Below are positions 793 to 6,051 of a DNA stretch of 7,699 nt, piece by piece. Position 1 is the first letter of the stretch. Every line of letters starts with the position of its first letter. The position numbers and the translations under genes were made by a program. Under the pieces are notes generated by a model that was not told where the DNA came from, searched no databases, and was given only the letters and a program-made list of their open reading frames with translations. This stretch comes from Alphaproteobacteria bacterium UBA2723 (GTDB lineage: Bacteria > Pseudomonadota > Alphaproteobacteria > RF32 > CAG-239): the NCBI GenBank assembly GCA_002353835.1, contig DEKL01000093.1:1-7699 (forward strand). The letters run 5' to 3'.

Positions 793-858
793 GATCATGG
801 TAATAATCCGGTTTTGATGAGTGCTGAAGATTTAGAGCTGATAAACAAGGCTTATTAA
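1..858 (+). CDS. MORN_2/YwqK-type repeat protein, 5'-truncated
   Basis: The reading frame is open from the first base and the repeat pattern continues unbroken into it, so the start lies upstream; a TTG at 52 falls inside a repeat and is not the start. The visible 285 residues are eleven 24-residue units of the form Y-Y-x-x-G-x-[LV]-x-x-x-x-x-Y-x-x-x-x-x-x-G-x-x-x-x, followed by a short tail (HGNNPVLMSAEDLELINKAY). Repeats like this (MORN_2, as in YwqK-family proteins) form beta-hairpin arrays. Many bacterial members are labelled 'YwqK-family antitoxin', but the biochemical role is generally unknown. No signal peptide can be judged because the N-terminus is missing. The protein is strongly acidic and Tyr/Gly/Lys-rich. 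It ends at a terminator shared with the convergent ugd. I am confident of the repeat class, not of a function. Confidence 0.85.
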   Translation, partial: YFENGNLEAEIPYKNDELDGEGTFYNEDGTLNLTVTYNDDVRNGMAKAYYPDGKVKVTVNYDNDVKNGVEKEYYENGVVKAELPYQKGVVEGIGREYYENSGLKMEMPYVNSLASGIAKFYDESGKLTTEAMYKKGKKDGVQKEYNSEGVQIAESIYQDDLLNGEYKEFYDDGKIKSTANYENGMLEGLSLVYDEEGNLAYEVPYVKNRKEGKVKRYYPSGKVMGEVSYEKGKKHGMLDAYNEDETLMAKVLFNKDEAIKGYSLDHGNNPVLMSAEDLELINKAY

Positions 859-874
859 AAATAGCATATAAAGA

Positions 875-905
875 AACAGCCCCCGATAGCAGGGGCTGTT
901 CTTTT
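875..905. terminator. Bidirectional Rho-independent terminator
   Basis: A perfect 9-bp stem (AACAGCCCC at 875-883 with GGGGCTGTT at 892-900) encloses an 8-base loop. A short T run (CTTTT) follows on the plus strand, and an A-rich run (AAAGAAA) before the stem becomes a T-rich tail on the minus strand. It sits between the convergent stop codons of the MORN-repeat gene and ugd, so it can end both transcripts. Confidence 0.85.
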
Positions 906-2841: not shown

Positions 2842-4770
2842 ATGAGTAATAAAGTATTAGGTATTGACCTTGGTACCACAAACTCCTGTTTTGCCATTAT
2901 GGAAGGCGGCGAGCCGAAAGTTTTGGAAAACTCCGAGGGTGCCAGAACAACACCGTCTATGGTTGCATTTACAGATACAGATCGTTTGGTCGGCTATCCG
3001 GCAAAACGTCAAGCTGTTACCAATCCGGAAAATACGCTGTTTGCGATTAAGCGTTTAATCGGTCGTCGTTTTGATTCTCCGGAAGTTGAGAAAGATAAAG
3101 ACCTTGTACCGTTTAAGATTGTTCCGGGTGATAACGGCGATGCTTGGGTTGAAGTTAAGGGTACAAAATATGCCCCGTCACAAATTTCTGCTATTGTTTT
3201 GCAGAAGATTAAGGAATTTGCCGAGAGCTATTTAGGCGAGAAGATTGAAAAAGCCGTTATTACGGTTCCGGCATATTTTAATGACAGCCAACGTCAAGCA
3301 ACAAAAGATGCCGGTAAAATTGCCGGTCTGGATGTTTTGCGTATCATTAACGAGCCGACTGCTGCCGCGCTTGCTTATGGTATGGATAAGAAAGCTTCCG
3401 GTACGATAGCGGTTTATGACCTCGGTGGCGGTACGTTTGATATTTCTATTTTGGAAATCGGTGACGGTGTGTTTGAAGTTAAGTCCACAAACGGTGATAC
3501 GTTCCTCGGCGGTGAAGACTTTGACCAACGCTTAGTTAACTACTTAGCCGAAGAATTTAAGAAAGAAAACAATATTGATTTGAAGCAGGACAGACTTGCT
3601 TTACAACGTTTGAAGGAAGCTGCCGAAAAAGCAAAAATTGAACTTTCTTCCGCAACACAAACCGAAATCAATTTACCGTTTATTACGGCAGATATGAGCA
3701 CCGGTTCTCCTATTCCGAAGCACTTAAACATTAAATTGACACGTGCTAAATTGGAATCCATTGTTGAAGATTTGATTGAGCGCACGGTTGAACCTTGTAA
3801 AAAAGCAATGGCAGATGCCGGTATCAGTTCTTCAGATATCAGCGAGGTTATCCTCGTCGGCGGTATGACTCGTATGCCGAAAGTACAGGAAAAAGTTAAA
3901 GAAATCTTTGGTAAAGAACCGCATAAAGGCGTTAACCCGGATGAGGTTGTTGCCGTTGGTGCCGCAATTCAGGGCGGTGTCTTGATGGGTGAAGTTAAAG
4001 ACGTTCTTTTGCTTGATGTTACCCCGCTTTCTTTGGGTATTGAAACATTGGGTGGTGTGTTCACCAGATTGATTGATAGAAACACAACTATTCCGACACG
4101 TAAATCTCAGGTATTTTCTACTGCAGAAGACGGTCAGACGGCTGTTACTATTCGCGTATTTCAAGGTGAACGTGAAATTGCCGCACACAACAAGCTGTTA
4201 GGTCAGTTTGATTTGGTTGGTATTCCGCCGGCACCGCGCGGTATGCCGCAAATTGAAGTTACCTTTGATATTGATGCCAACGGTATTGTTAACGTTTCGG
4301 CAAAAGATAAGGCAACAAACAAAGAGCAAGCTATTCGTATTCAAGCTTCCGGTGGTTTGTCTGAAGCCGATATTGAAAAGATGGTCAAAGATGCGGAAGC
4401 CAATGCCGAAGCCGATAAGAAGAAGAAAGAGCTTGTTGAAGCTAAGAACCAAGCCGAAGGTTTGATTCATACCACAGAGAAGACCTTAAAAGAAAATTCT
4501 GATAAGATTTCTTCTGCGGATAAAGATGCGATTGAGCAGGCCATTACTGCATTGAAAGGTGTTATTGACGGCGAAGACGTTGAAGCGATTAAGTCTAAGT
4601 CAGATGCTTTAATGCAGGCTTCTTTGAAGTTAGGTGAAGCCATGTATAAGGCGCAAGGTGCTGATGCGGCGGCTGCCGGTGCAAGTGCCGGAGCTGAACA
4701 GGGCGCACCTGAGGCTGAAGCTAAAAAAGACGACAATGTCGTTGATGCTGATTTTGAAGAAGTTAAATAA
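2842..4770 (+). CDS. dnaK: Chaperone DnaK (Hsp70)
   Basis: This is the cytosolic ATP-dependent Hsp70 that folds and remodels proteins with DnaJ and GrpE. It is 642 residues, full family length. The ATPase domain (about 1-385) shows phosphate-1 motif GIDLGTTNS (7-15), the Hsp70 signature DLGGGTFD (193-200, with autophosphorylation-type Thr198) and the third signature around [12 protein letters not shown] (337-348). The interdomain linker is [10 protein letters not shown] (387-396). The substrate-binding beta domain follows to about residue 505, then the helical lid, an Ala/Gly-rich linker (about 608-625) and the acidic tail [11 protein letters not shown]. The long N-terminal insert near 80-100 fits Gram-negative DnaK. 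AAGGA (2829-2833) lies 8 bases before the ATG. A strong terminator follows directly and no dnaJ is adjacent, unlike the common dnaK-dnaJ order. Confidence 0.98.
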
Positions 4771-4789
4771 CAGACTTTCTTTTAAGACG

Positions 4790-4818
4790 AAAAAGCCGTG
4801 GTTTTCCACGGCTTTTTT
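4790..4818 (+). terminator. Rho-independent terminator after dnaK
   Basis: A perfect stem, AAAAGCCGTGG (4791-4801) with CCACGGCTTTT (4806-4816), extends by one more A-T pair. It has a TTTT loop and ends in a run of six T (4813-4818). It lies 20 bases past the dnaK stop, so dnaK is transcribed separately from what follows. Confidence 0.93.
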
Positions 4819-4848
4819 GTTGTGTAGGCGAGAATAAATATTTTTTAG

Positions 4849-4876
4849 TTGATATTTAAGTTTTATAAGCTAGACT
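4849..4876 (+). promoter_or_regulatory. Promoter of the intergenic structured RNA
   Basis: TTGATA (4849-4854, 4 of 6 to the -35 consensus) and TAGACT (4871-4876, 4 of 6 to the -10 consensus) are 16 bases apart in an A+T-rich stretch just after the dnaK terminator. Transcription would start near 4883, right before the first RNA hairpin. The fit between promoter, hairpins and downstream terminator is the main support. Confidence 0.5.
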
Positions 4877-4882
4877 GACAGC

Positions 4883-5099
4883 AGGTGCGAAAATTTCGTA
4901 CCAGCGCCGGAGACGGTGCGGGGCTTTGAACGGCCTTTATTGAGTGCGGTGTTGGATATGGCACCGATAATGCATATATCCCCGACTTGGTCGGGGAGCT
5001 TTTAGCGTATGTCCAAGGGTAACCCAAAAGGCTAAAAGAGTCATTTCACTCAATATGATTGTTCAACTCCCCTGCCGCCTTTTTTAAGGTGGTTTTTTT
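4883..5099 (+). ncRNA. Structured noncoding RNA or leader, family unknown
   Basis: The segment of about 217 bases between promoter and terminator lacks a convincing ORF and is clearly G+C-richer than the intergenic DNA around it. By eye it folds as follows. Hairpin 1 is GGTGCGAA (4884-4891)/TTCGTACC (4895-4902). Hairpin 2 is GCGCCG (4904-4909)/CGGTGC (4914-4919) with a GAGA (GNRA) loop. Outer helix A is GGGG-ct-TTGAAC (4920-4931) with GTTCAA-ct-CCCC (5061-5072). Inner helix B is TATTGAGTG (4938-4946) with CACTCAATA (5047-5055). Inside B are hairpins CGGTGT/GCACCG (4947-4966), CCCCGAC/GTCGGGG (4980-4996) and CTTTTAGC/GCTAAAAG (4999-5038). It closes with an intrinsic terminator. I see no RNase P, SRP, tmRNA-tag or common riboswitch core. 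6S RNA was considered, but a multibranched fold fits it poorly. It could be a trans-acting RNA or a leader of the glycosyltransferase operon. Confidence 0.7.
5075..5099 (+). terminator. Rho-independent terminator of the structured RNA
   Basis: CCGCCTT (5075-5081) pairs with AAGGTGG (5086-5092) through one G·T wobble and a TTTT loop, followed by seven T residues (5093-5099). It ends 25 bases before the glycosyltransferase start codon. With no clear promoter in that gap, read-through may be needed to express the operon. Confidence 0.85.
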
Positions 5100-5108
5100 G
5101 CTATTAAC

Positions 5109-5114
5109 AAGGGA
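5109..5114 (+). promoter_or_regulatory. Ribosome binding site fixing the glycosyltransferase start
   Basis: AAGGGA lies 10 bases before ATG 5125. It supports this start over an in-frame TTG at 5059, which would place 22 extra codons across the RNA helix and terminator and ahead of the conserved GT2 N-terminus. Confidence 0.65.
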
Positions 5115-5124
5115 TTTTGAACTA

Positions 5125-6051
5125 ATGCCTGAAATATCGGTTATTATGCCAGTCTATAACACAGCTTCTTATTTAGCGCAAAGCATAGAGAGTGTGCTTA
5201 ACCAAACATATTCGGACTTTGAGTTGATTATTGTTGATGATGGCTCAACAGATGATTCATTAAAGATTATAAACAGTTATGCCGCCAAAGATAAGAGAAT
5301 AAAAGTCATTACACAGGAAAATCAAGGTTTATCTGAAGCTCGTAATAGTGGTATAAAAATAGCCGGTGGAGAGTATATTGCCTTTATAGACAGTGATGAT
5401 TTCTATGCAAAAAATTTTTTAGGACAGCTTGTTCATGCTCAAAAGAAAACAAATGCAGATATAGTGGGTTGTGATTTTAAGAAGATTCGGTCTTCTAAAG
5501 ACCATATCAAGGTTGTTAATAGGTTTTCTTATGTGGTTTATCCTAATGCGTTAGAGGTATTACTTCATAAAAATAATTTTATTCATTTTAACGTGTGGAA
5601 CAAACTTTATAAGCGAGAGGTTATCGGAGAGATTCGGTTTGTTCCGCATATTTATTATGAAGATTGGGTTTTTAATTGCTGTGTGTTTGAGCGAGCAAAC
5701 TGCTTTGTTTGGATAAAAGAGAGACTCTATGGCTACAACTATTCTGATAATTCCATTATGCGTAGCGCTTTTACTGAGAAGAAATTAACAGATTATGTGA
5801 CAGGTATCAAAGAAGTTCATCGCTATTTTATGAAAAATGCACCGGAGAAGTGGGAACAGGTAAAAAGAACGCGTGTTTCTCGCACTGTCAAAATGTTGAT
5901 GAACGGTACTTTGCGAAGCAAGGATAAAAATTTACGCCTCAAAACTGCACTTGCTCTGCAAGAGCTTAAGGCTGATGAGTTGATTACTTATGCAGGATTA
6001 TCATTAAAAAACAAACTTAAACTGTATTATTTTCAAAATTTGAAAGGATAG
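5125..6051 (+). CDS. GT2-family glycosyltransferase
   Basis: This is a 308-residue GT-A fold, family 2 transferase that moves a sugar from a nucleotide-sugar donor, probably onto a surface glycan. The start chosen gives the classic N-terminus PEISVIMPVYN (2-12). It is followed by the nucleotide-binding block IIVDDGSTDDS (35-45), the GLSEARNSG block (68-76), the metal-binding DSDD (89-92) and YYEDW (177-181), whose Glu-Asp is the likely catalytic-base region. No transmembrane segment is visible, so it is cytosolic or peripheral. The C-terminal third is Lys/Arg-rich, as in many capsule and LPS GT2 enzymes. The donor and acceptor cannot be read from the sequence. It is followed after 2 bases by the HAD-domain gene, clearly one operon, and preceded by the structured RNA and its terminator. 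Confidence 0.9.
   Translation: MPEISVIMPVYNTASYLAQSIESVLNQTYSDFELIIVDDGSTDDSLKIINSYAAKDKRIKVITQENQGLSEARNSGIKIAGGEYIAFIDSDDFYAKNFLGQLVHAQKKTNADIVGCDFKKIRSSKDHIKVVNRFSYVVYPNALEVLLHKNNFIHFNVWNKLYKREVIGEIRFVPHIYYEDWVFNCCVFERANCFVWIKERLYGYNYSDNSIMRSAFTEKKLTDYVTGIKEVHRYFMKNAPEKWEQVKRTRVSRTVKMLMNGTLRSKDKNLRLKTALALQELKADELITYAGLSLKNKLKLYYFQNLKG

What the first reader, a model, noticed from the sequence alone, without database searches (positions are those of the whole stretch)
4883..5099. Unassigned highly structured RNA between dnaK and a glycan operon
About 217 bases bounded by a promoter-like pair and an intrinsic terminator form two 5' hairpins, nested long-range helices (4920-4931 with 5061-5072; 4938-4946 with 5047-5055) enclosing three more hairpins, and a GNRA tetraloop. 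The segment is G+C-richer than neighbouring intergenic DNA, as expected of a functional RNA in an A+T-rich genome. It does not show the cores of RNase P, SRP, tmRNA or the usual riboswitches that I can recognise.
Basis: partly seen in the sequence, partly recalled or inferred. Interest (0 to 1): 0.75.

Follow-up and report, generated by a model that had tools for sequence, protein, structure and literature searches.

The report
Widespread RNA switch before surface genes
This stretch of a bacterium's DNA is predicted to be copied into a knotted RNA whose relatives sit at the start of many other genes in two bacterial phyla; it likely switches the next gene on or off, and it appears to be a full-length relative of an RNA catalogued so far only as a short piece.

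Summary
4883-5099 folds far better than shuffles (z -6.7). It is one copy of a large RNA family: 87 of 101 genomes searched in the same bacterial family carry it, some with at least 24 copies. It also occurs elsewhere in Alphaproteobacteria, on conjugative plasmids, in viral contigs and in Acidobacteriota. On 28 copies, 44 of 63 proposed pairs change on both sides, three pseudoknots included. It is best read as a 5' leader: a same-strand start codon with Shine-Dalgarno follows within 110 nt in 41 of 43 family copies, against 2 of 43 in a mirror control. A 3' 'pivot' strand can pair upstream (antiterminator) or be freed for the terminator; in distant copies it complements the Shine-Dalgarno. 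This is the anatomy of a riboswitch with unknown ligand. It is not wholly unassigned: it is a distant relative of sRNA-Xcc1 (RF02221), whose 87-nt Rfam model covers only the 3' half. The window copy scores 15.8 bits against a cut-off of 53, so it is no formal member. c-di-GMP is an unlikely ligand: no GGDEF domain was found in this genome. Transcription, ligand binding and switching are inferred.

The parts
4849..4876 (+). promoter-like pair TTGATA-16-TAGACT (weak)
   Evidence: 9 of 12 matches; 1.5 such sites expected by chance; not evidence of function
4904..4919 (+). P0 hairpin 5' of the core (4904-4909/4914-4919)
   Evidence: fold; a hairpin at this place in 115 of 121 distinct copies not fetched as family f1 (crude script without a chance control)
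4920..5078 (+). conserved RNA core, end-to-end match to covariance model R1
   Evidence: 162 bits (this copy is one of the 28 in R1, so it matches by construction); R1 hits in 87 of 101 genomes of the family
4921..4936 (+). P1 hairpin (4921-4924/4933-4936)
   Evidence: 100% of cells paired, 3 of 4 pairs change on both sides
4926..4931 (+). PK1, loop strand; pairs with 5061-5066
   Evidence: 4 of 6 and 6 of 6 pairs change on both sides
5061..5066 (+). PK1, 3' strand
4938..4946 (+). P2, 5' strand; pairs with 5047-5055
   Evidence: 9 of 9 pairs change on both sides
5047..5055 (+). P2, 3' strand
4947..4966 (+). P3 hairpin (4947-4953/4960-4966); its loop 4956-4959 forms PK2 with 4976-4979
   Evidence: P3; PK2: own partners 12.3 against swapped 9.0 (sd 0.33) in 46 rows outside f1
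4980..4996 (+). P4 hairpin (4980-4986/4990-4996)
   Evidence: 98% of cells paired
4999..5038 (+). P5 (4999-5006/5031-5038) with P5a (5017-5019/5023-5025); near-invariant unpaired A5009 U5010 and A5027-A5029
   Evidence: 8 of 8 pairs change on both sides; conservation
5039..5060 (+). P6 (5039-5043/5056-5060), crossing P2
   Evidence: 99% and 96% of cells paired
4989..4998 (+). upstream partner of the pivot strand (predicted antiterminator, GGUCGGGGAG)
   Evidence: 98.4% of cells paired on 90 rows, 5 of 10 pairs with changes on both sides; 9 of 10 pairs possible in the window copy
5067..5076 (+). pivot strand (CUCCCCUGCC): shared by antiterminator, terminator and, in distant copies, the Shine-Dalgarno
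   Evidence: T5073 is G in 98% of 88 copies
5074..5099 (+). intrinsic terminator (stem 5074-5093, then T run)
   Evidence: a terminator-like site within about 60 nt in 43 of 44 distinct f1 copies (crude script)
5109..5127 (+). Shine-Dalgarno-like AAGGGA (5109-5114) and ATG (5125-5127)
   Evidence: sequence
5125..6051 (+). predicted target gene: family 2 glycosyltransferase, 308 aa
   Evidence: PF00535, 150.9 bits
6054..7613 (+). next gene, 2 nt on, probably the same operon: HAD-like hydrolase domain protein, 519 aa
   Evidence: PF00702, 28.6 bits (cut-off 26.4)

Best explanation
The segment is a conserved 5' leader, a distant relative of sRNA-Xcc1, that likely controls the glycosyltransferase gene behind it as a riboswitch-like attenuator. 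The core has one hairpin whose loop is pseudoknotted to the 3' end, a closing helix, inner hairpins and two more pseudoknots. The 3' pivot strand (5067-5076) has two possible fates. If it pairs with 4989-4998, P4 is opened, the terminator arm is occupied and transcription would run on (ON). If P4 forms, the pivot is free, the terminator 5074-5093 forms and transcription would stop (OFF). Outside the family, the pivot and the neighbouring PK1 strand complement the Shine-Dalgarno of the next gene, so the same choice would act on translation. An unknown signal, likely a small molecule bound near the invariant P5 internal loop, would choose between the folds. Shown: structure by covariation, position, conservation of both competing pairings, spread. 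Inferred: transcription, switching, its direction and the signal.
For: Structure. Leader position: same-strand ATG with Shine-Dalgarno 8-110 nt downstream in 41 of 43 f1 copies and 76 of 104 other copies, against 2 of 43 and 8 of 104 in a mirror control. Switch anatomy: P4 and the pivot helix share a strand and each keeps about 98% of its cells paired. Terminator-like sites: 43 of 44 f1 copies. Shine-Dalgarno pairing in 38 copies outside f1: own 14.97 against swapped 13.41 (sd 0.28), 0 of 500; on two Agrobacterium plasmids it is an 8-bp UCCAACCC/GGGUUGGA at traM. Family link: in 20 genomes searched with RF02221, its hits coincide with R1/R2 hits at 11 places in 11 genomes, two of them above RF02221's cut-off (G622, 69.9 bits; G701, 61.6 bits). 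7 of 10 RF02221-type copies that I looked at carry an upstream hairpin whose loop matches the PK1 strand over 8-9 nt, own 19.7 against swapped 15.4, 0 of 2000.
Against: No transcript, ligand or reporter datum exists for this copy. The pivot helix is so conserved that its both-sided changes rest on few sequences (1-3 cells for each of 5 pairs). In a nested energy model the pivot fold of the window copy is much weaker than the P4-plus-terminator fold (-52.7 against -69.5 kcal/mol; pseudoknots are not counted), and T5073 breaks one of its ten pairs. In f1, Shine-Dalgarno complementarity is barely above swapped controls (5 of 500 as high). Published work calls sRNA-Xcc1 a trans-acting sRNA of 88 nt. 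28 of 104 copies in the second group failed the simple downstream start test. In the window's own genome the three RF02221 hits (best E 6e-4) lie elsewhere than the three elements. R2 missed the RF02221 copies of L266-L269, and 3 of the 10 copies lack the PK1 hairpin. The shuffles do not correct for relatedness of the copies.
Confidence: 0.72

Rival explanations
1. A trans-acting small RNA: transcription ends at 5099 and the free RNA of about 180-215 nt, or its 3' half, pairs with other mRNAs, as proposed for sRNA-Xcc1 in Xanthomonas and Xylella.
For: sRNA-Xcc1 is a distinct ~100-nt northern band, mapped as 88 nt (PMC2996969, passages). An 89-nt sRNA-Xcc1 has many RNA-seq reads and little ribosome coverage in one E. 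coli data set (PMC5331693, table passage). f1 copies end in a terminator-like site.
Against: Fixed short distance and strand to a start codon; Shine-Dalgarno complementarity that changes with the pivot; in Xanthomonas cassettes it also lies upstream of symE (PMC12444791, passages). A terminated or processed leader could give the same northern band.
Confidence: 0.15
2. The same leader and switch, but driven by a protein, a tRNA or a passing ribosome rather than a small molecule.
For: Very diverse target genes and no common pathway; a predicted kissing pair of outer hairpins in plasmid-type copies would suit a protein-bound particle.
Against: No partner gene was sought, so this is weakly tested; the invariant internal loop (A5009 U5010, A5027-A5029) also suits a small ligand.
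Confidence: 0.28
3. A repeated mobile DNA element, such as an integron or REP-like repeat, that happens to fold.
For: Many copies in some genomes (at least 24), clustered copies (L017), presence on plasmids and viral contigs, and of sRNA-Xcc1 in integrons (PMC12444791, passages).
Against: Covariation in all ten proposed helices, pseudoknots included, fixed leader position, and divergence: most long matches are 65-82% identical to the window copy, unlike recent transposition.
Confidence: 0.04

Closest known systems
sRNA-Xcc1 (RF02221)
   Same: Rfam's 87-nt model aligns end to end with 4989-5084: its outer helix is the pivot helix, its inner hairpins are P5 and P6. Of ten RF02221-type copies in other genomes, 7 have an upstream hairpin with the PK1 match. 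Both lie before genes, and many copies of both are on mobile elements.
   Different: The window copy is far below the cut-off (15.8 against 53 bits). The present RNA is about twice as long, with P1-P4, PK1 and PK2 outside the Rfam model, and is read here as a cis leader rather than a trans sRNA.
c-di-GMP riboswitches (GEMM; their gene range is recalled, from no call)
   Same: Many copies per genome before pilin, adhesin and polysaccharide genes, phage copies, terminator platforms.
   Different: No Rfam match on the element, and no GGDEF domain found in the window's genome or in G017, which has 13 copies.
Atu_Ti1 (RF02506)
   Same: An RNA on the same Agrobacterium plasmids, in the tra region.
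   Different: It lies about 1.4 kb away on the other strand and is a different RNA.

Membership tests
sRNA-Xcc1 (RF02221) | score at or above the gathering cut-off of 53 bits | tested here: not met
   window copy 15.8 bits, E 3.4; three of 13 loci scanned give 32.5, 24.6 and 23.5 bits on the element
sRNA-Xcc1 (RF02221) | outer 9-10 bp helix enclosing two hairpins | tested here: met
   pivot helix, P5 and P6 in the alignment; counts
sRNA-Xcc1 (RF02221) | an independent model of the new family finds true RF02221 places | tested here: met
   two above-cut-off and nine below-cut-off RF02221 hits coincide with R1/R2 hits; but R2 did not find the RF02221 copies of L266-L269 at E 0.1
sRNA-Xcc1 (RF02221) | acts in trans as an sRNA | not testable with these tools
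   literature claim only, by the title of Chen 2011 as cited in PMC12444791
riboswitch (general kind) | conserved complex RNA domain in 5' leaders of many genes | tested here: met
   that it is transcribed with the gene is inferred
riboswitch (general kind) | mutually exclusive pairings that reach a terminator or Shine-Dalgarno | tested here: met
   as conserved pairing potential, not as measured switching
riboswitch (general kind) | direct binding of a small ligand | not testable with these tools
   needs in-line probing or binding assays
c-di-GMP riboswitch | match to the known aptamer models | tested here: not met
   cmscan E<=10 gives only a 17.8-bit c-di-GMP-I-UAU match on the other strand at 4762-4821, outside the element; none
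c-di-GMP riboswitch | host makes c-di-GMP (GGDEF domain) | tested here: not met
   none found in G000 (97.5% complete), G017 and G004; found in 30 of 33 genomes of the family

The most novel reading that the evidence does not exclude
This is a new, very widespread riboswitch class with an unknown ligand. sRNA-Xcc1 is merely its 3' half in the antiterminator fold. Bacteria in two phyla use it in front of surface genes, and plasmids and phages use it in front of their decision genes: traM on conjugative plasmids, symE, phage antirepressors, Cro/C1-type regulators.
Probability: 0.5. Interest if true: 0.9.

Novelty: new variant of a known kind. Interest (0 to 1): 0.78.

Why it matters
An RNA catalogued as an 88-nt trans-acting sRNA would become the 3' end of a large cis-acting sensor shared by Pseudomonadota and Acidobacteriota, by conjugative plasmids and by phages. 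On Agrobacterium plasmids it sits directly before traM, the antiactivator that holds back quorum-controlled conjugation (role of TraM recalled). If it senses a molecule, that molecule would be a signal that hosts and their mobile elements both read. The structural model gives exact bases to test, so the question of what sRNA-Xcc1 does becomes directly testable.

Tried and rejected
Rfam classes: no match to the element at the gathering cut-off in the window (which lists matches to E 10), in the distant loci (19 of 20 fetched; L092 was left out) or in the plasmid loci. Most of the weak hits between 4712 and 4888 (STnc430, RefA9 and others) lie over the dnaK terminator. The second weak hit on the element, rpfG (12.0 bits, E 3.2), was not pursued: it recurs nowhere.

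c-di-GMP as ligand: rejected for this genus by the missing GGDEF domain; not tested for other carriers.

Nested-only structure as folded by energy: replaced, because comparative counts favour P1 plus PK1 over one long helix at 4920-4931.

radC motif, Rhizobiales-2, STAXI (named in PMC2864571, passages): considered from their taxon columns; no cmscan match at E<=10.

A small RNA of the tra region (Atu_Ti1): a different RNA.

Rows dropped: alignment A1 used 28 of the 32 loci L001-L032 (L012 and L029 truncated or divergent, L016 and L020 near-duplicates). The Pfam scan used 49 of the 62 proteins (13 short or doubtful ones left out), that used 39 of 41. One search used 10 of the 12 RF02221 hits over 47 bits; the two left out (G610 C8 and C23) had not been fetched.

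Not followed: a systematic search for a partner protein; R-scape could not be run here; Chen 2011 (RNA Biol.) is not held, so how far it already described homologues in Alphaproteobacteria is unknown to me. Searches for a prior description of a leader or riboswitch role; none of the listings or passages that I read says so, but most subscription papers are not held.

Full report
WHAT IS THERE. The window is contig C57 of an unnamed 1.61-Mb genome. The class is Alphaproteobacteria: the 'same class' genome G294 has a contig of 2,837,007 bases, the length of BAOK01000001 (Alpha proteobacterium Mf 1.05b.01), and the element lies at the same place in both, 1934354-1934511. Between dnaK (2842-4770) and a glycosyltransferase gene (ATG 5125) the stretch 4883-5099 folds with z -6.7. 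Rfam gives nothing there at its cut-offs. BLASTN found matches in 41 of 90 genomes, the window's own included, often several per genome; the own genome has three clear copies.

STRUCTURE. 28 copies were aligned and a structure was written by eye from the alignment. Of 63 pairs, 44 have changes on both sides; 93.9% of cells are paired; 0 of 500 shuffles reach this; sliding a strand by one base drops pairing to 38-43%. The structure was derived from these sequences, which favours it, so it was counted again on 92 copies aligned by a covariance model. The helices used in the model hold in 96.4% of cells, which leans towards the model by construction. PK1, P6 and the pivot helix, which the model did not use, hold in 95.4%, with 14 of 21 pairs changed on both sides. 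PK2 (loop of P3 with the bases before P4) was tested sequence by sequence: in the 46 rows outside the family, own partners score 12.3 against 9.0 (sd 0.33, best of 200 swaps 9.8); inside the family the sequences are too alike for more than a small difference (14.87 against 14.49, sd 0.09). Near-invariant bases of the P5 internal loop are A5009, U5010 and A5027-A5029.

DISTRIBUTION. Model R1 hits 87 of 101 genomes of the family and 130 of 153 of the order; listed counts reach 24 per genome, the number of candidates scored. In the class it hits 30 of 385, and the broader model R2 hits 48 of 385. In the phylum R2 hits 26 of 398, 8 of them outside the class. A pattern scan of named genomes returned 118 stretches and stopped at its limit (titles). 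They include Rhizobiales, Rhodobacterales, Sphingomonadales and Caulobacterales (orders by the titles and my knowledge) and Acidobacteriota such as Granulicella rosea and Terriglobus albidus; a Nevskia and a Rickettsia endosymbiont are among the 38 seen by pattern only. R2 was run on the first 80 of the 118 and matched all 80 at E<=0.001, some weakly (L198 33.6 bits, L138 cut by an end). 251 plasmid records match a chromosomal copy, 209 of them typed conjugative, and 360 match an Agrobacterium plasmid copy. 18 viral contigs carry the pattern; R1 found the element in 17 of these 18 at E 0.1 (none for L110) and in all 5 plasmid loci.

POSITION. In 48 family copies the chosen start codon lies 23-77 nt behind the core in 45; the exceptions are L021, L024 and L066 (counted by me from the list). 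With a stricter test and a mirror control: 41 of 43 against 2 of 43 in the family, 76 of 104 against 8 of 104 in the other copies. Some of the 104, named only as rumen or gut MAGs, may also belong to this family. Copies with under 350 nt of flank, short matches and duplicates were dropped before that count. What follows, by eye in the 48: 16 secreted proteins with a shared signal-peptide start, 7 type IV pilin-like proteins, 10 lipoprotein-like, 3 glycan enzymes, 3 Cro/C1-type regulators, 9 others. Pfam on 39 of these proteins: outer-membrane barrel 3, carbohydrate-binding Cthe_2159 3, glycosyltransferase 2, HTH_3 2 and others. Pfam on 49 proteins behind named copies: TraM 5, RovC_DNA-bd 5, HTH_3 2, and singles such as an autotransporter and a nuclease. 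On two Agrobacterium plasmids the element sits between a traH-family gene and traM; TraM was confirmed in Pfam for one.

SWITCH ANATOMY. The pivot strand CUCYCCGACC pairs with the P4 3' arm GGUCGGGGAG in 98.4% of cells, while P4 itself pairs in 98.1%. Both cannot exist at once. In the family, 43 of 44 distinct copies have a terminator-like hairpin behind the core; outside, 19 of 44 by the same crude script. In 38 copies outside the family, with or without such a site, the Shine-Dalgarno region complements the pivot and PK1 strand better than swapped partners do: 14.97 against 13.41 (sd 0.28), 0 of 500; in 41 inside the family 5 of 500 swaps reach the observed value. In the second group of copies a 5' hairpin region with ACGC and a 3' region with GGGCG occur together (42 both, 5 and 1 one only, 56 neither), which predicts a kissing contact; relatedness was not corrected for. 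For the window copy the energy model favours P4 plus terminator by 16.8 kcal/mol over the pivot fold, pseudoknots ignored. So the default would be OFF and the ON fold needs help from pseudoknots, timing or a ligand. The direction of the ligand effect is not determined.

KNOWN FAMILY. A permissive scan of 13 bridging loci gave sub-cut-off RF02221 hits on the element, same strand, in three: L243, L170 and L153. The window copy itself gives 15.8 bits, E 3.4, next to an rpfG hit of E 3.2. RF02221 was then run on 20 genomes: 17 have a hit at E<=1, 4 above the cut-off; of 14 control genomes 2 ring, none above. Its hits coincide with R1/R2 hits at 11 places in 11 genomes: above the cut-off in G622 and G701, below it in G748, G695, G608, G678, G629, G693, G065, G224 and G294. 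In the window's genome its three hits lie elsewhere. Of ten RF02221-type copies (8 above cut-off, 2 just below) 7 have an upstream hairpin whose loop matches the PK1 strand over 8-9 nt. Three of those ten (L265) precede SymE-type proteins by eye, one of which was checked in Pfam; another (L264) precedes a P22-type antirepressor, and the R2-only copy L271 a Bro-N protein. Literature, passages only: sRNA-Xcc1 is an 88-nt RNA seen on northerns (PMC2996969) and in RNA-seq (PMC7694677); it lies upstream of symE in Xanthomonas integron cassettes (PMC12444791); Xylella has seven copies, five clustered (PMC12189769); Rfam release 15 revised its structure by two covarying pairs (PMC11701678). A cis leader would account for symE and for clustered copies without a trans target.

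LIMITS. No expression or binding data exist for this copy. R1 and R2 contain many of the copies counted, and E-values are rough. RF02221 also gives 35 weak hits in G033 and 16 in G224; apart from one in G224, those that I compared lie at other places than the listed R1/R2 hits and remain unexplained (the hit lists were cut).

Noticed in passing
L017 (G043:C3), 1451-2117: Three copies of the RNA within 667 nt; the third match has a large gap over P4 and P5. A partial second copy also follows the element in L081, and L107 has two copies about 2.9 kb apart.
   Followed up: partly
L118, L101, L116 and others, just before and after the core: A 5' hairpin with ACGC in its loop and a 3' hairpin with a GGGCGY loop occur together in many plasmid and Acidobacteria copies, suggesting a kissing contact.
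   Followed up: partly
G033, G224 and G000: Many weak sRNA-Xcc1 hits at places other than the listed model hits (one in G224 coincides); cause unknown.
   Followed up: no
window 4792-4819: A terminator-like hairpin follows dnaK; no dnaJ lies downstream in the window, where glycan genes begin.
   Followed up: no
window 837-904: Sub-threshold ohsC-like hit (29 bits, cut-off 50) that is mostly a terminator-like hairpin behind the first open reading frame.
   Followed up: no
L098-L115 (IMG/VR contigs): In several viral contigs the element lies 13-21 nt before very small open reading frames, some near lysin-like genes (by eye).
   Followed up: partly
window 5073: T here and in the C35 copy, where 98% of 88 copies have G; it breaks one of the ten pivot pairs.
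   Followed up: partly
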